Shown: positions 16,111 to 21,862 of the stretch, one piece after another | How the letters are laid out: the number at the start of each line of letters is the position of its first letter | How positions within the stretch are numbered: the first letter of the stretch is position 1 | Assembly (NCBI GenBank): GCA_003994795.1 | Contig: AP018269.1 | Location: forward strand, 5,581,254-5,645,253 | Length of the DNA stretch: 64,000 nt | Reading direction: 5' to 3' | Source of the DNA: Cylindrospermum sp. NIES-4074 | Lineage (GTDB): Bacteria; Cyanobacteriota; Cyanobacteriia; Cyanobacteriales; Nostocaceae | The notes under the pieces: generated by a model | Told to the model about the DNA's origin: nothing | Seen by the model: only the letters and a program-made list of their open reading frames with translations | Database searches by the model: none | Program-made: the position numbers and the translations under genes

Positions 16111-16183
16111 GGATATCTAGATATCCTATATTCTTAGCATTGCATATCCATATATCCTTAAAATGGATTTTCAGATATGCAAT
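16111..16183 (+). promoter_or_regulatory. Probable operator/promoter of the first RHH gene
   Basis: Upstream of the RHH gene lies a perfect 16-bp palindrome GGATATCTAGATATCC (16111-16126), then a 10-bp inverted repeat ATTGCATATC (16139-16148) / GATATGCAAT (16174-16183). Several TATCC or GGATA half-sites recur between them. Tandem short half-sites of this kind are typical operators for RHH regulators, so autoregulation is likely (inference). Confidence 0.5.
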
Positions 16184-16202
16184 AATCTAGGAACAAAACA
16201 TA

Positions 16203-16544
16203 ATGGAATCGGAAAATGGCAAGAACAGGTCGTCCCAAGTCTGGGAGAGACACGAAAGGGGTCAGCCTGAAAGTGAATCCCGAAGCGTGGGATCTCTTTC
16301 AGGAGTTGGCGGAAAGCATGAGTCTTACCAGGTCAGAGTTGGTAGAGAAGATAGCTACAAAACAAATACCTTTGTCCCAAGAGAACAGTCTGGTGAGGGA
16401 ATCACTGGGAAAATTATTGGCCAGCTAGTCGGTGAAACCGAAAAGCAGCTGGCTTACCACGAACAACAAGTTGAACTCCTGAAACGCAGGCTTGAGGAGT
16501 TAAAACAATTTTCCGAGATTACAGACAACAGTGATGGGAAGTAA
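16203..16544 (+). CDS. -1 frame reading frame overlapping RHH gene A, with coiled-coil tail
   Basis: This 113-codon frame starts at ATG 16203, 13 nt before the RHH ATG, and covers the whole RHH gene in the -1 frame without a stop. The part over the RHH gene has shadow-like composition. The part after the RHH stop is a convincing helical tail (IIGQLVGETEKQLAYHEQQ, then VELLKRRLEELKQF) that is homologous to the tail of paralogue B. Two readings are possible: the tail is joined to the RHH domain by -1 frameshifting at 16407-16413, or the frame is translated on its own from 16203, which has the better SD (AGGA at 16189-16192). Confidence 0.55.
   Translation: MESENGKNRSSQVWERHERGQPESESRSVGSLSGVGGKHESYQVRVGREDSYKTNTFVPREQSGEGITGKIIGQLVGETEKQLAYHEQQVELLKRRLEELKQFSEITDNSDGK
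16216..16428 (+). CDS. Ribbon-helix-helix DNA-binding protein A (zero frame)
   Basis: 70 residues: basic N-terminus ARTGRPKSGRDTKG, beta strand VSLKVNPEAW, then helices WDLFQELAESM and SLTRSELVEKIATKQI, matching the CopG/Arc-type RHH fold, which dimerises and inserts a two-stranded sheet into the DNA major groove. It ends LGKLLAS at TAG 16426-16428. Paralogous to the gene at 16860. It probably represses its own promoter, which carries palindromes. A -1 slip at 16407-16413 would replace the last residues with a coiled-coil tail. Confidence 0.72.
   Translation: MARTGRPKSGRDTKGVSLKVNPEAWDLFQELAESMSLTRSELVEKIATKQIPLSQENSLVRESLGKLLAS
16407..16453 (+). promoter_or_regulatory. Candidate -1 frameshift signal A: slippery heptamer plus stem-loop
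   Basis: G-GGA-AAA at 16407-16413 is in phase with the RHH codons (GGA 16408, AAA 16411) and fits X-XXY-YYZ. After a 6-nt spacer (TTATTG) comes a perfect 7-bp stem GCCAGCT (16420-16426) / AGCTGGC (16447-16453). Inside it is a second stem TCGGT-GAA-ACCGA (16429-16441). The RHH stop codon lies in the stem base. The -1 frame continues for 43 codons beyond the heptamer. Confidence 0.5.
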
Positions 16545-16546
16545 TA

Positions 16547-16576
16547 CCGTCCTACTTTTGAACCGGGGCGGTTTTT
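16547..16576 (+). terminator. Rho-independent terminator after RHH/coiled-coil A
   Basis: CCGTCC (16547-16552) pairs with GGGCGG (16566-16571), followed by TTTTT. It starts 3 bp after the end of the coiled-coil frame, which supports that frame's stop as the true end of the gene. The same structure follows paralogue B. Confidence 0.65.
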
Positions 16577-16580
16577 GCTT

Positions 16581-16670
16581 TCAGGCGATCGCATTTCCCT
16601 ACCCGTAGTTATGTGCTAAATTCATACGCTAAAAGAGTTTTAGGTTTTAATTTTCTTCTAAATATCTCCT
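16581..16670 (+). repeat. 90-bp direct repeat, copy 1
   Basis: Positions 16581-16670 match 17221-17310 at 87 of 90 bases. With the similar terminators, the repeated unit is about 124-125 bp. The downstream noncoding block is far better conserved than the protein-coding parts of the two RHH genes. Confidence 0.85.
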
Positions 16671-16763
16671 ATCTTGTTTGATCTATCGAACTGTTATCAA
16701 CACACCCTACCAAAGTGCTGAAGAAAGCAGATGGTAGGGATAAGGATCGCGAGTAGTAACATT

Positions 16764-16846: not shown

Positions 16847-17185
16847 ATGGTGGGACGCAATGCCCAAGGCCAAGCATTTAGAACACGGCGAAATCAAGAA
16901 AACAATTACAGTCAGCCTGACCGAGACAAGTGTGCAGGGATTGGACGAGAAGGCGAAACACCTGGGGATAAGCAGGTCGCAGCTAATAGAACTAATTGGG
17001 AGGGACAAAATCTCCTTGGCAACGCCAGAGGCGCAATTAGTGGGGGAATTGTTGAGCGGCTGATTGCTCAGACTCGCAATCAGGTAGAAGAGTCAGAGGC
17101 TCACACCGCAAAATTGAAACAGCAGCTGCAAGAGCTAGAAGAACTATTAGAAGAGTTGACGCAAAGCTCTAATGAGTCTGAATAA
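16847..17185 (+). CDS. -1 frame reading frame overlapping RHH gene B, with coiled-coil tail
   Basis: 112 codons starting at ATG 16847, again exactly 13 nt before the RHH ATG and again in the -1 frame. AGGAAG (16837-16842) lies just upstream of this ATG. The tail beyond the RHH stop (IVERLIAQTRNQVEESEAH, KLKQQLQELEELLEELT) is a heptad-like coiled coil aligned with that of paralogue A (GKIIGQL / GGIVERL). The first half looks like a shadow of the RHH frame. Frameshift fusion or independent translation are both possible. Confidence 0.55.
   Translation: MVGRNAQGQAFRTRRNQENNYSQPDRDKCAGIGREGETPGDKQVAANRTNWEGQNLLGNARGAISGGIVERLIAQTRNQVEESEAHTAKLKQQLQELEELLEELTQSSNESE
16860..17063 (+). CDS. Ribbon-helix-helix DNA-binding protein B (zero frame)
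   Basis: 67 residues: KKTITVSLTETSVQGLDEKAKHLGISRSQLIELIGRD matches the beta-helix-helix layout of CopG-like regulators (strand ITVSL, helix 1 SVQGLDEKAKHL, helix 2 SRSQLIELI). It ends VGELLSG at TGA 17061-17063, aligning with LGKLLAS of paralogue A. Sequence identity to A is low apart from the fold pattern, so the duplication is old or the two were recruited separately. Confidence 0.72.
   Translation: MPKAKHLEHGEIKKTITVSLTETSVQGLDEKAKHLGISRSQLIELIGRDKISLATPEAQLVGELLSG
17042..17083 (+). promoter_or_regulatory. Candidate -1 frameshift signal B
   Basis: G-GGG-GAA at 17042-17048 is in phase with the RHH codons (GGG 17043, GAA 17046) and aligns exactly with the heptamer of paralogue A (LGK versus VGE). 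Re-pairing after a -1 slip would need a G-U wobble in the A site, so it is weaker than A. A perfect 7-bp stem CTGATTG (17060-17066) / CAATCAG (17077-17083) follows after 11 nt. Confidence 0.4.
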
Positions 17186-17216
17186 CCGTCCTGTCTTTGG
17201 ACTAGGGCGGTTTTTT
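17186..17216 (+). terminator. Rho-independent terminator after RHH/coiled-coil B
   Basis: CCGTCC (17186-17191) pairs with GGGCGG (17205-17210), followed by six T. It begins directly after the stop of the coiled-coil frame (17183-17185) and corresponds to the terminator at 16547. Confidence 0.65.
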
Positions 17217-17220
17217 GCAT

Positions 17221-17310
17221 TCAGGCGATCGCATTCCCCTACCCGTAGTTATGTGCTAAATTCATACACTGAAAGAGTTTTAGGTTTTAATTTTCTTCTA
17301 AATATCTCCT
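17221..17310 (+). repeat. 90-bp direct repeat, copy 2
   Basis: Matches 16581-16670 with three substitutions and no gaps, exactly 640 bp downstream. It follows the terminator of the second RHH gene, as copy 1 follows the first. Confidence 0.85.
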
Positions 17311-17454
17311 AGTTATCAGCAGGAAGCAGGAGATACACATTCGACCTTTGCTGAAAATGAATGAGAGACTTTTAGAAAACTAGCCCAAATAACTGTTTCT
17401 TCCCGATTCGGTTAAACCGGCTGGATTCTGATGGCTTATTACTAGGCGAATTGA

Positions 17455-17471: not shown

Positions 17472-17480
17472 TTGAAATAT

Positions 17481-17744
17481 ATGGTAAAGAGAAAACGTCA
17501 ACTCCATAATTCAGCGGAGGTAGTTGTGCCGTTAAAGGCGATACGTGAACAGCTTGGTATGACTCAAGCTGAGTTTGCTGTTGCAATTGGGATAGACCCT
17601 TCTACCGTTAGCCGCTGCGAACGAGGGATGAGTGAACCTAGCCTGACAATCCTGCAAACAAAGCGATTATGCAAGCTGGTAGAAAAGGGTTTAGATGAAC
17701 TACCCGACTATTTAGGGAAGCATCCAGAACAAACTATGAGCTAG
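17481..17744 (+). CDS. XRE-family helix-turn-helix regulator 1
   Basis: 87 residues from the ATG at 17481; a TTG at 17472 is in frame but inside the putative operator. The HTH_3 domain covers about residues 19-75: LKAIREQLGMTQAEFAVAIGIDPSTVSRCERGMSEPSLT, with the recognition helix PSTVSRCERG. It resembles phage or plasmid Cro/CI-type and antitoxin regulators. Immediately followed (21 bp) by a paralogue. Confidence 0.8.
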   Translation: MVKRKRQLHNSAEVVVPLKAIREQLGMTQAEFAVAIGIDPSTVSRCERGMSEPSLTILQTKRLCKLVEKGLDELPDYLGKHPEQTMS

Positions 17745-17765: not shown

Positions 17766-18041
17766 ATGATCAAAAAAAGACAGAACAAAGACAACGAGGG
17801 TGAGTCACCCTTGAAAGCCCTTAGATCCGATTTAGATATGTCTCAAGAAGAGTTTGGGCGCTCTATTGGTACAACAGCCAGAACTATTAGTAGATGGGAA
17901 GCTGGGGATAGTGTACCTACGTTTACTATTCCCCAATTGAAAGCGCTAGATCGCCTGCTGAAATTGAAGGGTAAAACTATCCAAGATTTACCTGATGATT
18001 TTGGGCCCAGTAGTCAGATGCAAACGGCCGAATCTGACTAA
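17766..18041 (+). CDS. XRE-family helix-turn-helix regulator 2
   Basis: 91 residues. HTH domain LKALRSDLDMSQEEFGRSIGTTARTISRWEAGDSVPTFTIPQLKALDRLL, similar in layout to the preceding gene (charged N-terminus, HTH, short LPD-F tail near the C-terminus: LPDYLG versus LPDDFG). The pair arose by tandem duplication. The function is likely transcription control of the local island. A GATCGCTC stretch precedes the ATG. Confidence 0.8.
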   Translation: MIKKRQNKDNEGESPLKALRSDLDMSQEEFGRSIGTTARTISRWEAGDSVPTFTIPQLKALDRLLKLKGKTIQDLPDDFGPSSQMQTAESD

Positions 18042-20431: not shown

Positions 20432-21862
20432 ACTCACATCTTGCACCTGGAAATATGAATGTCAAAACCACAACTACGTGCGAGGGGAAGACATCGCTCA
20501 ATATCAAGTAAAATAAGAGACACAACTATTTGAGGAAAAAGTGATTCTCTTGCAGTTTGTGCAGCCTGACCCCAATCAGGTGGTAATGGGAACTGTGCTT
20601 CGAGATAAGTCCAGTGAGCTATGAGGTAAGCAGTTAGAGAAAGGATGAGCCAACGATACATACCAAGTAGAGTCCCCTGCCCAAAGCGGTGTAAGCCAAA
20701 ACGGTGCTTTGCGGTTTTAAACCATCCTTCTATCTGCCAACGACGTTTTCCCCACCATTTAATGGTGCTAGATTTCAGAGGTCGGGTGGACAAAACAAAG
20801 CGTTTTTCTAAAGAGCCATTGTCACGTTTGAGATAGTACCAAGAGACGGTGACAGGAAACTTTAAACCGACCAAATGTACCTGTTGCCCCTGTTGATGTA
20901 GATGTCGTAAAACTCTGCCATCAACTAATTTACGGTTAATCGCTAAACCTGTAATTGCATGATATTTAAGCTGACGTACACCGTGAAGAAATTCAGCACT
21001 ACCAAAAGCTGTATCCGCCAAAATCATCACATGGAACTGTTTAGTGAGTAATTTTGGTAAACGTTGGACTAATTTCAGCCCTAACTGCGCTTGTGAAGGA
21101 GTACCTTTACCTCTCCAGACTCGGAAACTCCAAGGAATTCGCCATCTTCCGACTACCAAATATAGCACCACTAGATGTAATCCCCTCTTTCCGTTATAAA
21201 CGGAGATTAAATGCTCAAAGTCCTGGAATTTTCCTTGTTTTTCAAGAGTTGTCAAGTCAACAATTACCTGTAAAAATGGTCTGCGTCCTTGACCAGATTC
21301 AGATAAAGTCTTTAAAACGGTCTCTAATATTTGATGACGAACAGTACGAATCAAGTCCCGTGTTGACCAAGGGTTGATATTTAAAAATCGGCTTAATGCG
21401 CTTGCTGACTTTGTTTGAGAATGTTCAGGCAAGGGATGCCCTTGTGCTTCCAAAAATAGCCCCAGCATTGTCTCTAGGTTCTCTTTTTGGTATTTCGTAG
21501 GCATCAATTCTTTGAGGTTGTATACTAAATCTTGGGCGTGGGCAAGCATTGTCTTGCTTTTTAGAATATATACTTCACGCCCTTTTTCCCATATTTTGAG
21601 CTTAATAACAGCAAACCCAGACATTTTTCCCATATTTAACGAACCGACAAGTCAGCACTCAGCACTTGCACTGTCGTAATTCACAGACAAAGCTTTGCTT
21701 CATTTCTGAATCCAGTTTTTTCAGCTTTTTACGTAAAATTACTTCTAATAGAGTTACATATATAACAAAAAATACAGTTGAATAACTTCGTTGTACACTG
21801 TCATATTCTTGTATTTATTTTTTGTTTTCTACGGGTTTATTCGGTAGGTGCAAGATGTGAGT
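20432..21862 (-). mobile_element. Insertion sequence (IS4-like) with 17-bp terminal inverted repeats
   Basis: Perfect inverted repeats ACTCACATCTTGCACCT (20432-20448) and AGGTGCAAGATGTGAGT (21846-21862) bracket one transposase gene, giving an element of 1431 bp. I see no convincing target-site duplication in the flanking bases. The right end lies 80 bp before tRNA-Leu(CAA) and the left end 48 bp after the oxidase stop. The intact reading frame suggests a recent or still active insertion. Confidence 0.85.
20434..21549 (-). CDS. DDE transposase (IS4/IS701-like)
   Basis: 371 residues from the ATG at 21547-21549 (MLAHAQDLVYNLKELMPTKYQ); the frame continues 28 codons upstream. Catalytic pattern: VIVDLTTL (first Asp), MILADTAFGSAEF (second Asp) and RRWQIEGWFKTAKHRFGLHRF (the Glu of the Y-x2-R-x3-E-x6-K-like helix). 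C-terminal membrane-like stretch LILSLTAYLIAHW is usual. Encoded inside the terminal repeats on the minus strand, so it is the mobilising gene of this IS. The stop overlaps the left repeat. Confidence 0.88.
   Translation of the reverse strand: MLAHAQDLVYNLKELMPTKYQKENLETMLGLFLEAQGHPLPEHSQTKSASALSRFLNINPWSTRDLIRTVRHQILETVLKTLSESGQGRRPFLQVIVDLTTLEKQGKFQDFEHLISVYNGKRGLHLVVLYLVVGRWRIPWSFRVWRGKGTPSQAQLGLKLVQRLPKLLTKQFHVMILADTAFGSAEFLHGVRQLKYHAITGLAINRKLVDGRVLRHLHQQGQQVHLVGLKFPVTVSWYYLKRDNGSLEKRFVLSTRPLKSSTIKWWGKRRWQIEGWFKTAKHRFGLHRFGQGTLLGMYRWLILSLTAYLIAHWTYLEAQFPLPPDWGQAAQTARESLFPQIVVSLILLDIERCLPLARSCGFDIHISRCKM

What the first reader, a model, noticed from the sequence alone, without database searches (positions are those of the whole stretch)
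16216..16544. Probable programmed -1 frameshift in a small RHH regulator gene
Seen: an RHH frame (16216-16428) ends LGKLLAS-stop, while a coiled-coil frame continues in the -1 register to 16544 and then directly meets a terminator. In phase with the RHH codons lies G-GGA-AAA (16407-16413). A 6-nt spacer and a 7-bp perfect stem (16420-16426 / 16447-16453) with an inner 5-bp stem follow. Known: X-XXY-YYZ heptamers with a structure 5-9 nt downstream drive -1 frameshifting (for example dnaX). Inferred: two products, a short RHH repressor and an RHH with a coiled-coil oligomerisation tail, made in a fixed ratio.
Basis: partly seen in the sequence, partly recalled or inferred. Interest (0 to 1): 0.8.

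Follow-up and report, generated by a model that had tools for sequence, protein, structure and literature searches.

The report
Two-frame regulator gene with frameshift
A very small cyanobacterial DNA-binding regulator gene appears to be read in two overlapping frames that share one coiled-coil end, probably joined by a programmed slip of the ribosome, and the same layout recurs in more than a hundred relatives.

Summary
The RHH frame (A, 16216-16428) ends just after G_GGA_AAA (16407-16413); a coiled-coil frame (B, -1) runs on to 16544, with a stem 6 nt downstream. It is not a lone oddity: a paralog beside it (16847-17185) has the same layout, as do 157 filtered genes (these two included) from about 90 cyanobacterial genomes. 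With genes aligned on the coil alone, the B codon at the site is GGG in 144 of 150. A stem is supported in about half the family. A smaller related group uses A_AAA_AAG.

Frame B is stop-free across the RHH region in 156 of 160 genes (8.8% expected). It has its own ATG/GTG, mostly 13 nt before the RHH ATG, in 147 of 157 (other frames 17 and 27). Yet its N-terminal half shows no amino-acid constraint.

Best explanation: one ~340-bp gene makes three proteins: RHH alone, RHH-coil by -1 frameshifting, and an RHH-less coil protein started upstream. In 16 of 20 chosen loci, relatives lie near integrase, helicase or an uncharacterised gene, so a CopG-like control role in integrative elements is inferred. 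Nothing is shown by experiment; my literature searches found no report of it.

The parts
16158..16186 (+). promoter-like site TTAAAA-17-AATAAT (TG before the second hexamer) of gene 1; start of transcription inferred near 16193
   Evidence: consensus scan, (3 such sites found in the region, 3.4 expected, so weak alone); family peak of TANAAT at -31 to -34 of the RHH ATG
16203..16544 (+). gene 1 frame B ORF (113 aa): own ATG 16203, unconstrained N-terminal half, helical tail (coiled coil) from the slip site on
   Evidence: B start 147 of 157 and B open 156 of 160 in the family; AlphaFold helix 66-110
16216..16428 (+). gene 1 frame A ORF: ribbon-helix-helix protein, 70 aa
   Evidence: (RHH_1 E 0.0093, below its cut-off)
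16395..16400 (+). SD-like GAGGGA upstream of the slip site
   Evidence: sequence; family enrichment
16407..16413 (+). slippery heptamer G_GGA_AAA
16420..16453 (+). stem-loop: 16420-16426 with 16447-16453, inner 16429-16433 with 16437-16441
   Evidence: covariation in A5; synonymous-shuffle control
16560..16574 (+). terminator-like hairpin and T-run after the frame B stop of gene 1
16847..17185 (+). gene 2 (paralog) frame B ORF, 112 aa, ATG 13 nt before the RHH ATG
16860..17063 (+). gene 2 frame A ORF: ribbon-helix-helix protein, 67 aa
   Evidence: Pfam RHH_1 3.1e-5, 24.2 bits, cut-off 20.5
17042..17048 (+). gene 2 slip site G_GGG_GAA
17060..17083 (+). gene 2 possible 8-bp stem CTGATTGC / GCAATCAG (11 nt after the heptamer)
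   Evidence: read by eye from the row of alignment A5; RNAfold of the single sequence prefers another fold
17191..17210 (+). terminator-like hairpin after the frame B stop of gene 2

Best explanation
The locus is a compact gene read in two frames. Ribosomes start at ATG2 (16216) and make a CopG-like RHH protein that stops at 16428. A fraction slips -1 at G_GGA_AAA, helped by the downstream stem and probably by the SD-like GAGGGA, and makes an RHH protein with a long helical (coiled-coil) tail. Other ribosomes start 13 nt earlier at ATG1 (16203), in the tail's own frame, and make a protein with an unstructured, sequence-unconstrained N-terminal half and the same coil. Shown by comparison: layout, slip site, change of conserved frame, B start, B openness. 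Inferred: that all three proteins are made, that the shared coil mixes them in oligomers (RHH-less chains diluting DNA-binding ones), and that relatives act as control proteins of integrative elements, as CopG does for plasmids.
For: (1) 206 distinct RHH matches in the loci then held (one protein gave three); 171 have the -1 tail: 160 G-type, 11 with A_AAA_AAG or a near variant. (2) In 70 representatives under 60% identical, A is conserved at L(-1) 0.77 (B 0.13) and G(0) 0.89, and B after the site (G 0.97, L+3 0.46, L+6 0.92); B in the 16 codons before it is 0.06-0.13 save one column of 0.30. (3) Aligned on the coil HMM, independent of any slip-site rule, the B codon at the site is GGG in 144 of 150 genes located from near the model's start (116 of 121 outside the loci used for the model); GGG is 19 of 128 Gly codons in the rest of the coil. 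(4) Seven sites with a broken G run (GGAAAAG 4, GGCAAAG 2, ACGAAAG 1) have A_AAG, not the equally allowed A_AAA; A_AAG is the best tetramer in E. coli (PMC4066793, passages). (5) Stem in 81 of 157 sequences: cells changed on both sides 45 vs 19.2 shuffled, 0 of 500; folding beyond synonymous shuffles in 75 of 157. (6) SD-like 66 of 157 vs 44.7 +/- 5.4. (7) B open 156 of 160 vs 8.8%, 68 of 70 representatives; B start 147 of 157 vs 17 and 27. (8) B model: residues 1-60 pLDDT 44-49, helix 66-110, 91-95 at 71-100.
Against: No expression data. G_GGG_GAA (50 of 171 sites) is not an X_XXZ_ZZN heptamer, and G_GG.A_AA.C (6 of 171) is of low efficiency in E. coli. Earlier E. coli work cited in PMC4066793 called G_GG.A_AA.A inefficient, though that study's own rule (V_VV.A_AA.R) puts it among the better ones. 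RNAalifold predicts no consensus stem. Two of the five covariation measures for A5 are not above shuffles (171 and 94 of 500). In the other half of the family pairing is not above shuffles (59.9% vs 59.5%; both-side changes 16 vs 7.3, but a slid control scores higher on covariation), and folding is barely above shuffles in its main group of 61. The 14 linker codons before L(-2) are variable in A too (0.08-0.17, one 0.30). RHH_1 is below its Pfam cut-off for gene 1, the AlphaFold model of A is weak (pLDDT 67) and no PDB fold match is significant. Why B must be open while its N-half is unconstrained is not explained by any test.
Confidence: 0.68

Rival explanations
1. Two nested genes only: A (RHH) and B (coil) are translated from their own starts and never joined; the constant G_GGR_RAN comes from both frames being coding there.
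For: B has its own conserved start and is open throughout. A little over half of the site's presence is expected from the amino acids L-G-K/E alone (84.6 of 160 after synonymous shuffling).
Against: B is at background before the site and conserved after it, while A is conserved at L(-1) and G, so the two pieces look like one protein. The site exceeds every shuffle (151 vs at most 97). The B N-half shows no constraint. In the A_AAA_AAG subfamily B is closed upstream (0 of 11 open), and the -1 ORF of L264 has no ATG/GTG/TTG in its first 17 codons, yet the tail persists.
Confidence: 0.17
2. Frameshift only: the fusion is made by -1 slippage, and ATG1 with open frame B is a regulatory decoy (competition for initiation, or translation cover for the tail mRNA) whose protein does nothing.
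For: B N-half has no amino-acid constraint. In the A_AAA_AAG subfamily a start-stop (ATGTAA/GTGTAA) stands shortly before the RHH start in 8 of 11.
Against: A decoy need not be stop-free over the 60-odd codons up to the coil, yet 156 of 160 are.
Confidence: 0.1
3. Transcriptional slippage on the G/A run puts extra bases into some mRNAs.
For: G5A2 and G3A4 runs at most sites.
Against: Runs are short, and GGCAAAG, ACGAAAG and GGAAAAG replace them in 7 members; an RNA stem downstream is not expected to matter. That bacterial polymerase needs longer runs is recalled, not tested.
Confidence: 0.02
4. Internal initiation in frame B near the slip site, with the G-run acting as a Shine-Dalgarno sequence.
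For: G-rich motifs probably gave such background in E. coli reporters (PMC4066793 passage).
Against: No ATG/GTG/TTG lies in frame B at the usual distance in gene 1; the codon after the slip varies (ATC 59, ATG 24, ATT 20, GTC 12, ATA 10, GTT 8, ACA 6, GTG 5 among the commonest of 157).
Confidence: 0.02
5. Chance layout or a decayed gene.
For: None found in the window; one degenerate copy exists elsewhere (L189).
Against: 157 filtered genes, 70 of them under 60% identical in the stretch compared, share it.
Confidence: 0.01

Closest known systems
Bacterial -1 programmed frameshift cassettes (dnaX; IS1/IS3 orfA-orfB)
   Same: In-phase slippery site, downstream stem, SD-like element upstream in part, 0-frame stop soon after; in IS elements too the short product binds DNA (dnaX and IS product roles recalled). 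G_GG.A_AA.A.C and .G occur among IS1/IS3 motifs (PMC4066793 passage).
   Different: Host is a free-standing RHH regulator; the added part is only a coil; most sites are G_GGA_AAA or the non-canonical G_GGG_GAA; the -1 frame is also open over the whole upstream gene with its own start.
Thermus rnpA-rpmH nested overlap with adjacent start codons
   Same: Two starts in different frames a few nt apart; one protein nested inside the other. [quoted passage not shown] coli examples pqiA, tamA and narQ.
   Different: Starts are 1 nt apart there and mostly 13 nt apart here; here the two frames are probably also joined by frameshifting and share a C-terminal domain.
CopG, RHH copy-number repressor
   Same: Nearest solved structure by sequence profile (1b01, E 4e-5); relatives here often lie near helicase and integrase genes.
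   Different: CopG is 45 aa, with no coil, no second frame and no frameshift (recalled).
csoS2 frameshift in alpha-carboxysomes
   Same: A -1 frameshift gene of CO2-fixing bacteria including cyanobacteria (a passage of PMC5009743 on 50% efficient -1 frameshifting; that the gene is csoS2 is recalled, in line with the listing).
   Different: Unrelated large scaffold protein; no second start or nested frame that I know of.

Membership tests
-1 programmed ribosomal frameshift gene | upstream frame conserved to the slip site, downstream frame conserved after it | tested here: met
   70 representatives (linker codons before the site variable in both frames)
-1 programmed ribosomal frameshift gene | in-phase X_XXZ_ZZN heptamer | tested here: met
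   window gene 1 G_GGA_AAA; gene 2 has G_GGG_GAA, not canonical
-1 programmed ribosomal frameshift gene | stimulatory structure 5-9 nt downstream | tested here: met
   gene 1, 6 nt; family support in the 81 of A5, not in the 44 of the other 76 tested
-1 programmed ribosomal frameshift gene | frameshifted product made in cells | not testable with these tools
   needs reporter or mass spectrometry
Ribbon-helix-helix (CopG/Arc) proteins | RHH_1 domain above Pfam cut-off | tested here: inconclusive
   gene 2 met (24.2 vs 20.5 bits); gene 1 not (16.3); RHH_1 in 12 of 29 members at E 0.001
Ribbon-helix-helix (CopG/Arc) proteins | strand plus two helices, dimer | tested here: inconclusive
   helices 22-34 and 39-47 (and 55-63), no strand, in a weak monomer model; best Foldseek hits include Arc, CopG and NikA but none significant
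Nested overlapping genes with neighbouring starts (Thermus rnpA-rpmH type) | second start close by in another frame, ORF open through the first gene | tested here: met
Nested overlapping genes with neighbouring starts (Thermus rnpA-rpmH type) | both proteins expressed | not testable with these tools
   no expression data at hand
IS element transposase gene pair | transposase domain in the second frame | tested here: not met
   none among the families listed for frame B of the two window genes or for 29 fused relatives

The most novel reading that the evidence does not exclude
A widespread family of mobile-element control genes makes three proteins from about 340 bp: two start codons, mostly 13 nt apart, open two frames, and a -1 frameshift joins the DNA-binding frame to a coil that the other frame also makes on its own. 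The gene would set the ratio of DNA-binding to non-binding subunits by start-codon choice and ribosomal slippage together.
Probability: 0.5. Interest if true: 0.87.

Novelty: new variant of a known kind. Interest (0 to 1): 0.78.

Why it matters
Confirmed bacterial frameshift genes outside IS elements, phages, dnaX, prfB and a few others are rare (recalled), and shared-start nested frames rarer still (PMC9841429, passages). A family with 157 filtered members would give a large natural data set on which slip sites and stimulators work outside E. coli. It would also show how a very small regulator can make a mixture of subunits from one gene, and it adds a likely control protein for integrative elements of Nostoc-type cyanobacteria. 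A gene finder that allows one frame per stretch would list only one of the overlapping frames (inference; annotation of these genes was not examined).

Tried and rejected
Chance or pseudogene: rejected by the family. Transposase pair: no such domain listed. Re-initiation at an AUN codon after the slip: the codon there varies and L005 has CTT. Amino-acid selection on the B N-half: not found; fourfold sites over the RHH region differ at least as often as in the coil for pairs of 40% identity or more (151 of 157 sequences). Consensus RNA fold: none by RNAalifold. Stem in the second group: pairing not above shuffles (44 of 76 sequences given). Viral contigs: no relative in one scan with gene 1 frame A. 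Plasmids: no match for two queries, three weak RHH matches for a third. Phages: one cyanophage, in two records, by one query. Selection on the coil of the A_AAA_AAG subfamily: too few sequences, no clear third-position excess. PDB fold search of A: nothing significant.

Rows dropped: 35 of 206 RHH matches (no short A tail with a -1 extension, or no start). Three of 160 G-type genes (L043, not credible; L049 and L130, slip site misassigned by the rule) before most later counts. Six more of 157. Thirty-two of 76 in alignment A6. The slip site was picked by rule (last in-phase G_GGN before AA/GA, else a codon ending in A before AAG/AAA), so the tally and the '150 of 157 GGG' follow partly from the rule. 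I therefore repeated the count with genes aligned on the coil model only, and report that instead.

Full report
What is there. Frame A (16216-16428) encodes a 70-aa protein with weak RHH matches; its -1 frame B is open from 16203 to 16544. G_GGA_AAA is at 16407-16413, in phase. A 7-bp stem begins 6 nt later with a 5-bp inner stem. A terminator-like hairpin follows the B stop. About 300 nt downstream lies a paralog with the same layout: A 16860-17063 (RHH_1 above its Pfam cut-off), B 16847-17185, slip site GGGGGAA at 17042-17048.

The family. Fused A-B proteins used as queries found matches in 14 of 100 (gene 1) and 40 of 100 (gene 2) related genomes. In one search a script found 40 candidate genes with the layout in those loci (39 after leaving out one spurious hit in L057). 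Alignment searches gave matches in 72 of 386 genomes of the phylum and in 76 and 152 of 217 of the family; those counts include RHH genes without the layout. In the loci then held an HMM of the RHH part gave 206 distinct matches. Of these, 171 have a short A tail and a -1 frame open for at least 30 codons past the A stop: 160 of G-type and 11 with A_AAA_AAG or a near variant. Four lie in the window's own genome: the two here, L002 and L003. Named hosts include Nostoc, Tolypothrix, Dendronalium, Iningainema, Plectonema and Calothrix. One scan of viral contigs with gene 1 frame A found no relative.

The slip site. In 171 genes the rule-picked sites are GGGAAAA 72, GGGGGAA 50, GGGGGAG 11, AAAAAAG 10, GGGAAAC 6, GGAAAAG 4, GGGGAAA 4, GGGGAAG 4, GGGAAAG 3, GGCAAAG 2 and five singles, three of which are rule errors or not credible. 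Because the rule asks for such a motif, I checked it in two other ways. First, an in-phase G_GGN_[A/G]AN lies in the last 12 codons of A in 151 of 160 G-type genes, in 1 and 1 of 160 in two other stretches of A, and in 84.6 +/- 5.4 (largest 97) after synonymous shuffling of the same proteins. Second, with frame B aligned to the coil model only (located in 156 of 160; 150 from near the model's start), the codon at the site is GGG in 144 of 150, and in 116 of 121 outside the loci used to build the model; GGG is 19 of 128 Gly codons in the rest of the coil. In 70 representatives under 60% identical, A identity is 0.77 at the Leu before the site and 0.89 at the Gly. B is 0.06-0.13 in the 16 codons before it (one column 0.30, mirroring a Glu of A), then 0.97 at the Gly, 0.46 at +3 and 0.92 at the Leu at +6. 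The linker between the RHH core and the site is variable in A too (0.08-0.17 with one column of 0.30). The A stop comes 0-9 codons after the site in 157 of 157. Seven sites with a broken G run have A_AAG. Passages of PMC4066793 name A_AA.G as the best tetramer and X_XX.A_AA.G as the best heptamers in E. coli, put V_VV.A_AA.R (which takes in G_GG.A_AA.A) among the efficient motifs although earlier work is quoted as finding G_GG.A_AA.A inefficient, rate G_GG.A_AA.C low, and list all three among motifs of IS elements. G_GGG_GAA is not of the X_XXZ_ZZN kind; I infer that slippage there rests on the P-site GGG.

Stimulators. 81 of 157 members can be aligned with a stem at columns 14-23/38-47 of A5, 6 nt after the heptamer. 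72.6% of cells pair (66.1% after shuffling; slid controls 18.8-48.1%) and 45 cells changed on both sides (19.2 shuffled, 0 of 500 as high); the numbers of pairs with such a change and of pair types are not above shuffles (171 and 94 of 500). Mean folding energies in the two groups with the QLI-type motif (45 and 30 sequences) are -14.0 and -13.5 against -9.6 and -9.05 for synonymous shuffles; in the largest other group (61) -9.9 against -9.1. In 44 of the other 76 sequences a different stem, read from one member, pairs in 59.9% against 59.5% of cells, with 16 against 7.3 both-side changes (3 of 500) but a slid control higher on covariation: not decided. RNAalifold finds nothing common. SD-like four-mers starting 9-18 nt before the heptamer occur in 66 of 157 against 44.7 +/- 5.4 (largest of 50 shuffles 58), and in 11 of 11 A_AAA_AAG genes against 7.2.

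Frame B has its own start. Over the RHH region frame B has no stop in 156 of 160 G-type genes. Synonymous shuffling with family codon usage predicts 8.8%; the +1 frame, with none open, behaves as expected. Among the 157, three are not open (L042, L240, L223), and 68 of 70 representatives are. Upstream, an ATG or GTG in open frame B lies within 31 nt of the RHH ATG in 147 of 157 genes, against 17 and 27 in the other frames; in the 70 representatives 66 against 6 and 11. ATG or GTG stands at -13 in 92 of 157. TANAAT peaks at -31 to -34 and SD-like purines at -22 to -26. The purine stretch is at Shine-Dalgarno distance from the B start and too far from the RHH start, but by the -10 position it may lie at or before the transcription start, so its role is open. 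Yet the N-half of B is not under detectable amino-acid selection. Fourfold sites over the RHH region differ as often as, or more often than, in the coil for pairs at 40% identity or more, and about as often below. In close pairs differences peak at A third positions in the RHH region (523, 274, 1392) and at B third positions in the coil (533, 292, 1117). AlphaFold gives residues 1-60 of B pLDDT 44-49 and one helix 66-110 (91-95 at 71-100, lower at its end), the slip-site Gly being residue 69.

A_AAA_AAG subfamily. Eleven genes have ATA/GTA AAA AAG (one ATC AAA AAG), a GGAGG upstream of it and hairpins after it. Frame B is closed upstream (0 of 11 open, mean 5.4 stops; 2.2% open expected). In 8 of 11 a start-stop ATGTAA or GTGTAA stands shortly before the RHH start. 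Here frameshifting is the simplest way to make the tail: in L264 the -1 ORF has no ATG/GTG/TTG in its first 17 codons. Evidence that this coil is selected is weak for lack of sequences.

Surroundings and role. I chose 20 loci, not at random, and fetched 14-19 kb each. Seven hold a phage-type integrase relative, seven a DnaB_N/AAA_25 helicase relative, and seven a relative of a protein without Pfam or PHROG match ('HESF'). At least one of these is present in 16 of 20, and in a seventeenth (L281) a small divergent gene only; none in L270, L277, L284, nor in the window. The nearest solved relative by profile is CopG (E 4e-5), a plasmid copy-number repressor (role recalled). I infer a control role in integrative elements; the window pair, followed by two XRE-type HTH genes, may be a detached copy.

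How it most likely works. A is made from ATG2. A fraction slips -1 to give RHH-coil. B, from ATG1, gives the coil without RHH. Mixed oligomers through the coil would let start choice and slippage set the number of DNA-binding heads. Layout, slip site, B start and openness are shown by comparison; products, efficiency, oligomers and targets are inferred.

What is known. Full-text searches for ribbon-helix-helix or CopG with frameshift terms gave no paper, nor did programmed frameshift with copy number, repressor and integrative; two broader searches listed nothing on such genes (titles and abstract starts seen). Papers with programmed ribosomal frameshifting and cyanobacteria number 46; of the 20 listed, 18 are on carboxysomes or CO2 concentration. 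Nine hold 'programmed frameshift' and cyanobacteria (listing only). The words CopG and ribbon(-helix) do not occur in the main text held of PMC3711429 and PMC5009743 (of the second, 300,000 of 475,107 characters). Passages of PMC9841429 name Thermus rnpA-rpmH as the only earlier bacterial ambiguous start site. Supplementary tables of the frameshift surveys were not open to me, so an unnamed cluster there cannot be excluded.

Noticed in passing
16555-16671 and 17195-17311: The stretches from the terminators on are 117-nt direct repeats, 91% identical, 640 nt apart: tandem duplication of the whole gene unit, or homogenised 3' ends.
   Followed up: partly
17472-17744 and 17766-18041: Two small XRE-type HTH genes follow the two RHH genes (Pfam HTH_3).
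   Followed up: no
L253, L254, L255, L260, L262, L263, L264, L265, upstream of the RHH start: A start-stop pair ATGTAA or GTGTAA stands before the RHH start of the A_AAA_AAG subfamily in these 8 of 11; possible re-initiation device.
   Followed up: partly
L046, L050, L059, L060, L061 (open frames listed at 1206-1907 aa): A related RHH domain stands at the N-terminus of very long proteins that look like PAS-type sensors (label recalled).
   Followed up: no
L189 and L190 (same genome): A copy in which an indel seems to have put part of the RHH and the B frame into one ORF (L189 read; the second place in that genome has the same E-value, score and span).
   Followed up: no
L033, 1113-1704 nt after the RHH ATG, and relatives: A protein without Pfam or PHROG match ('HESF') lies in 49 of 160 held flanks; candidate replication protein by position only.
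   Followed up: partly
20434-21633, - strand: ORF that looks like a DDE transposase (from recall of such sequences; no search run).
   Followed up: no
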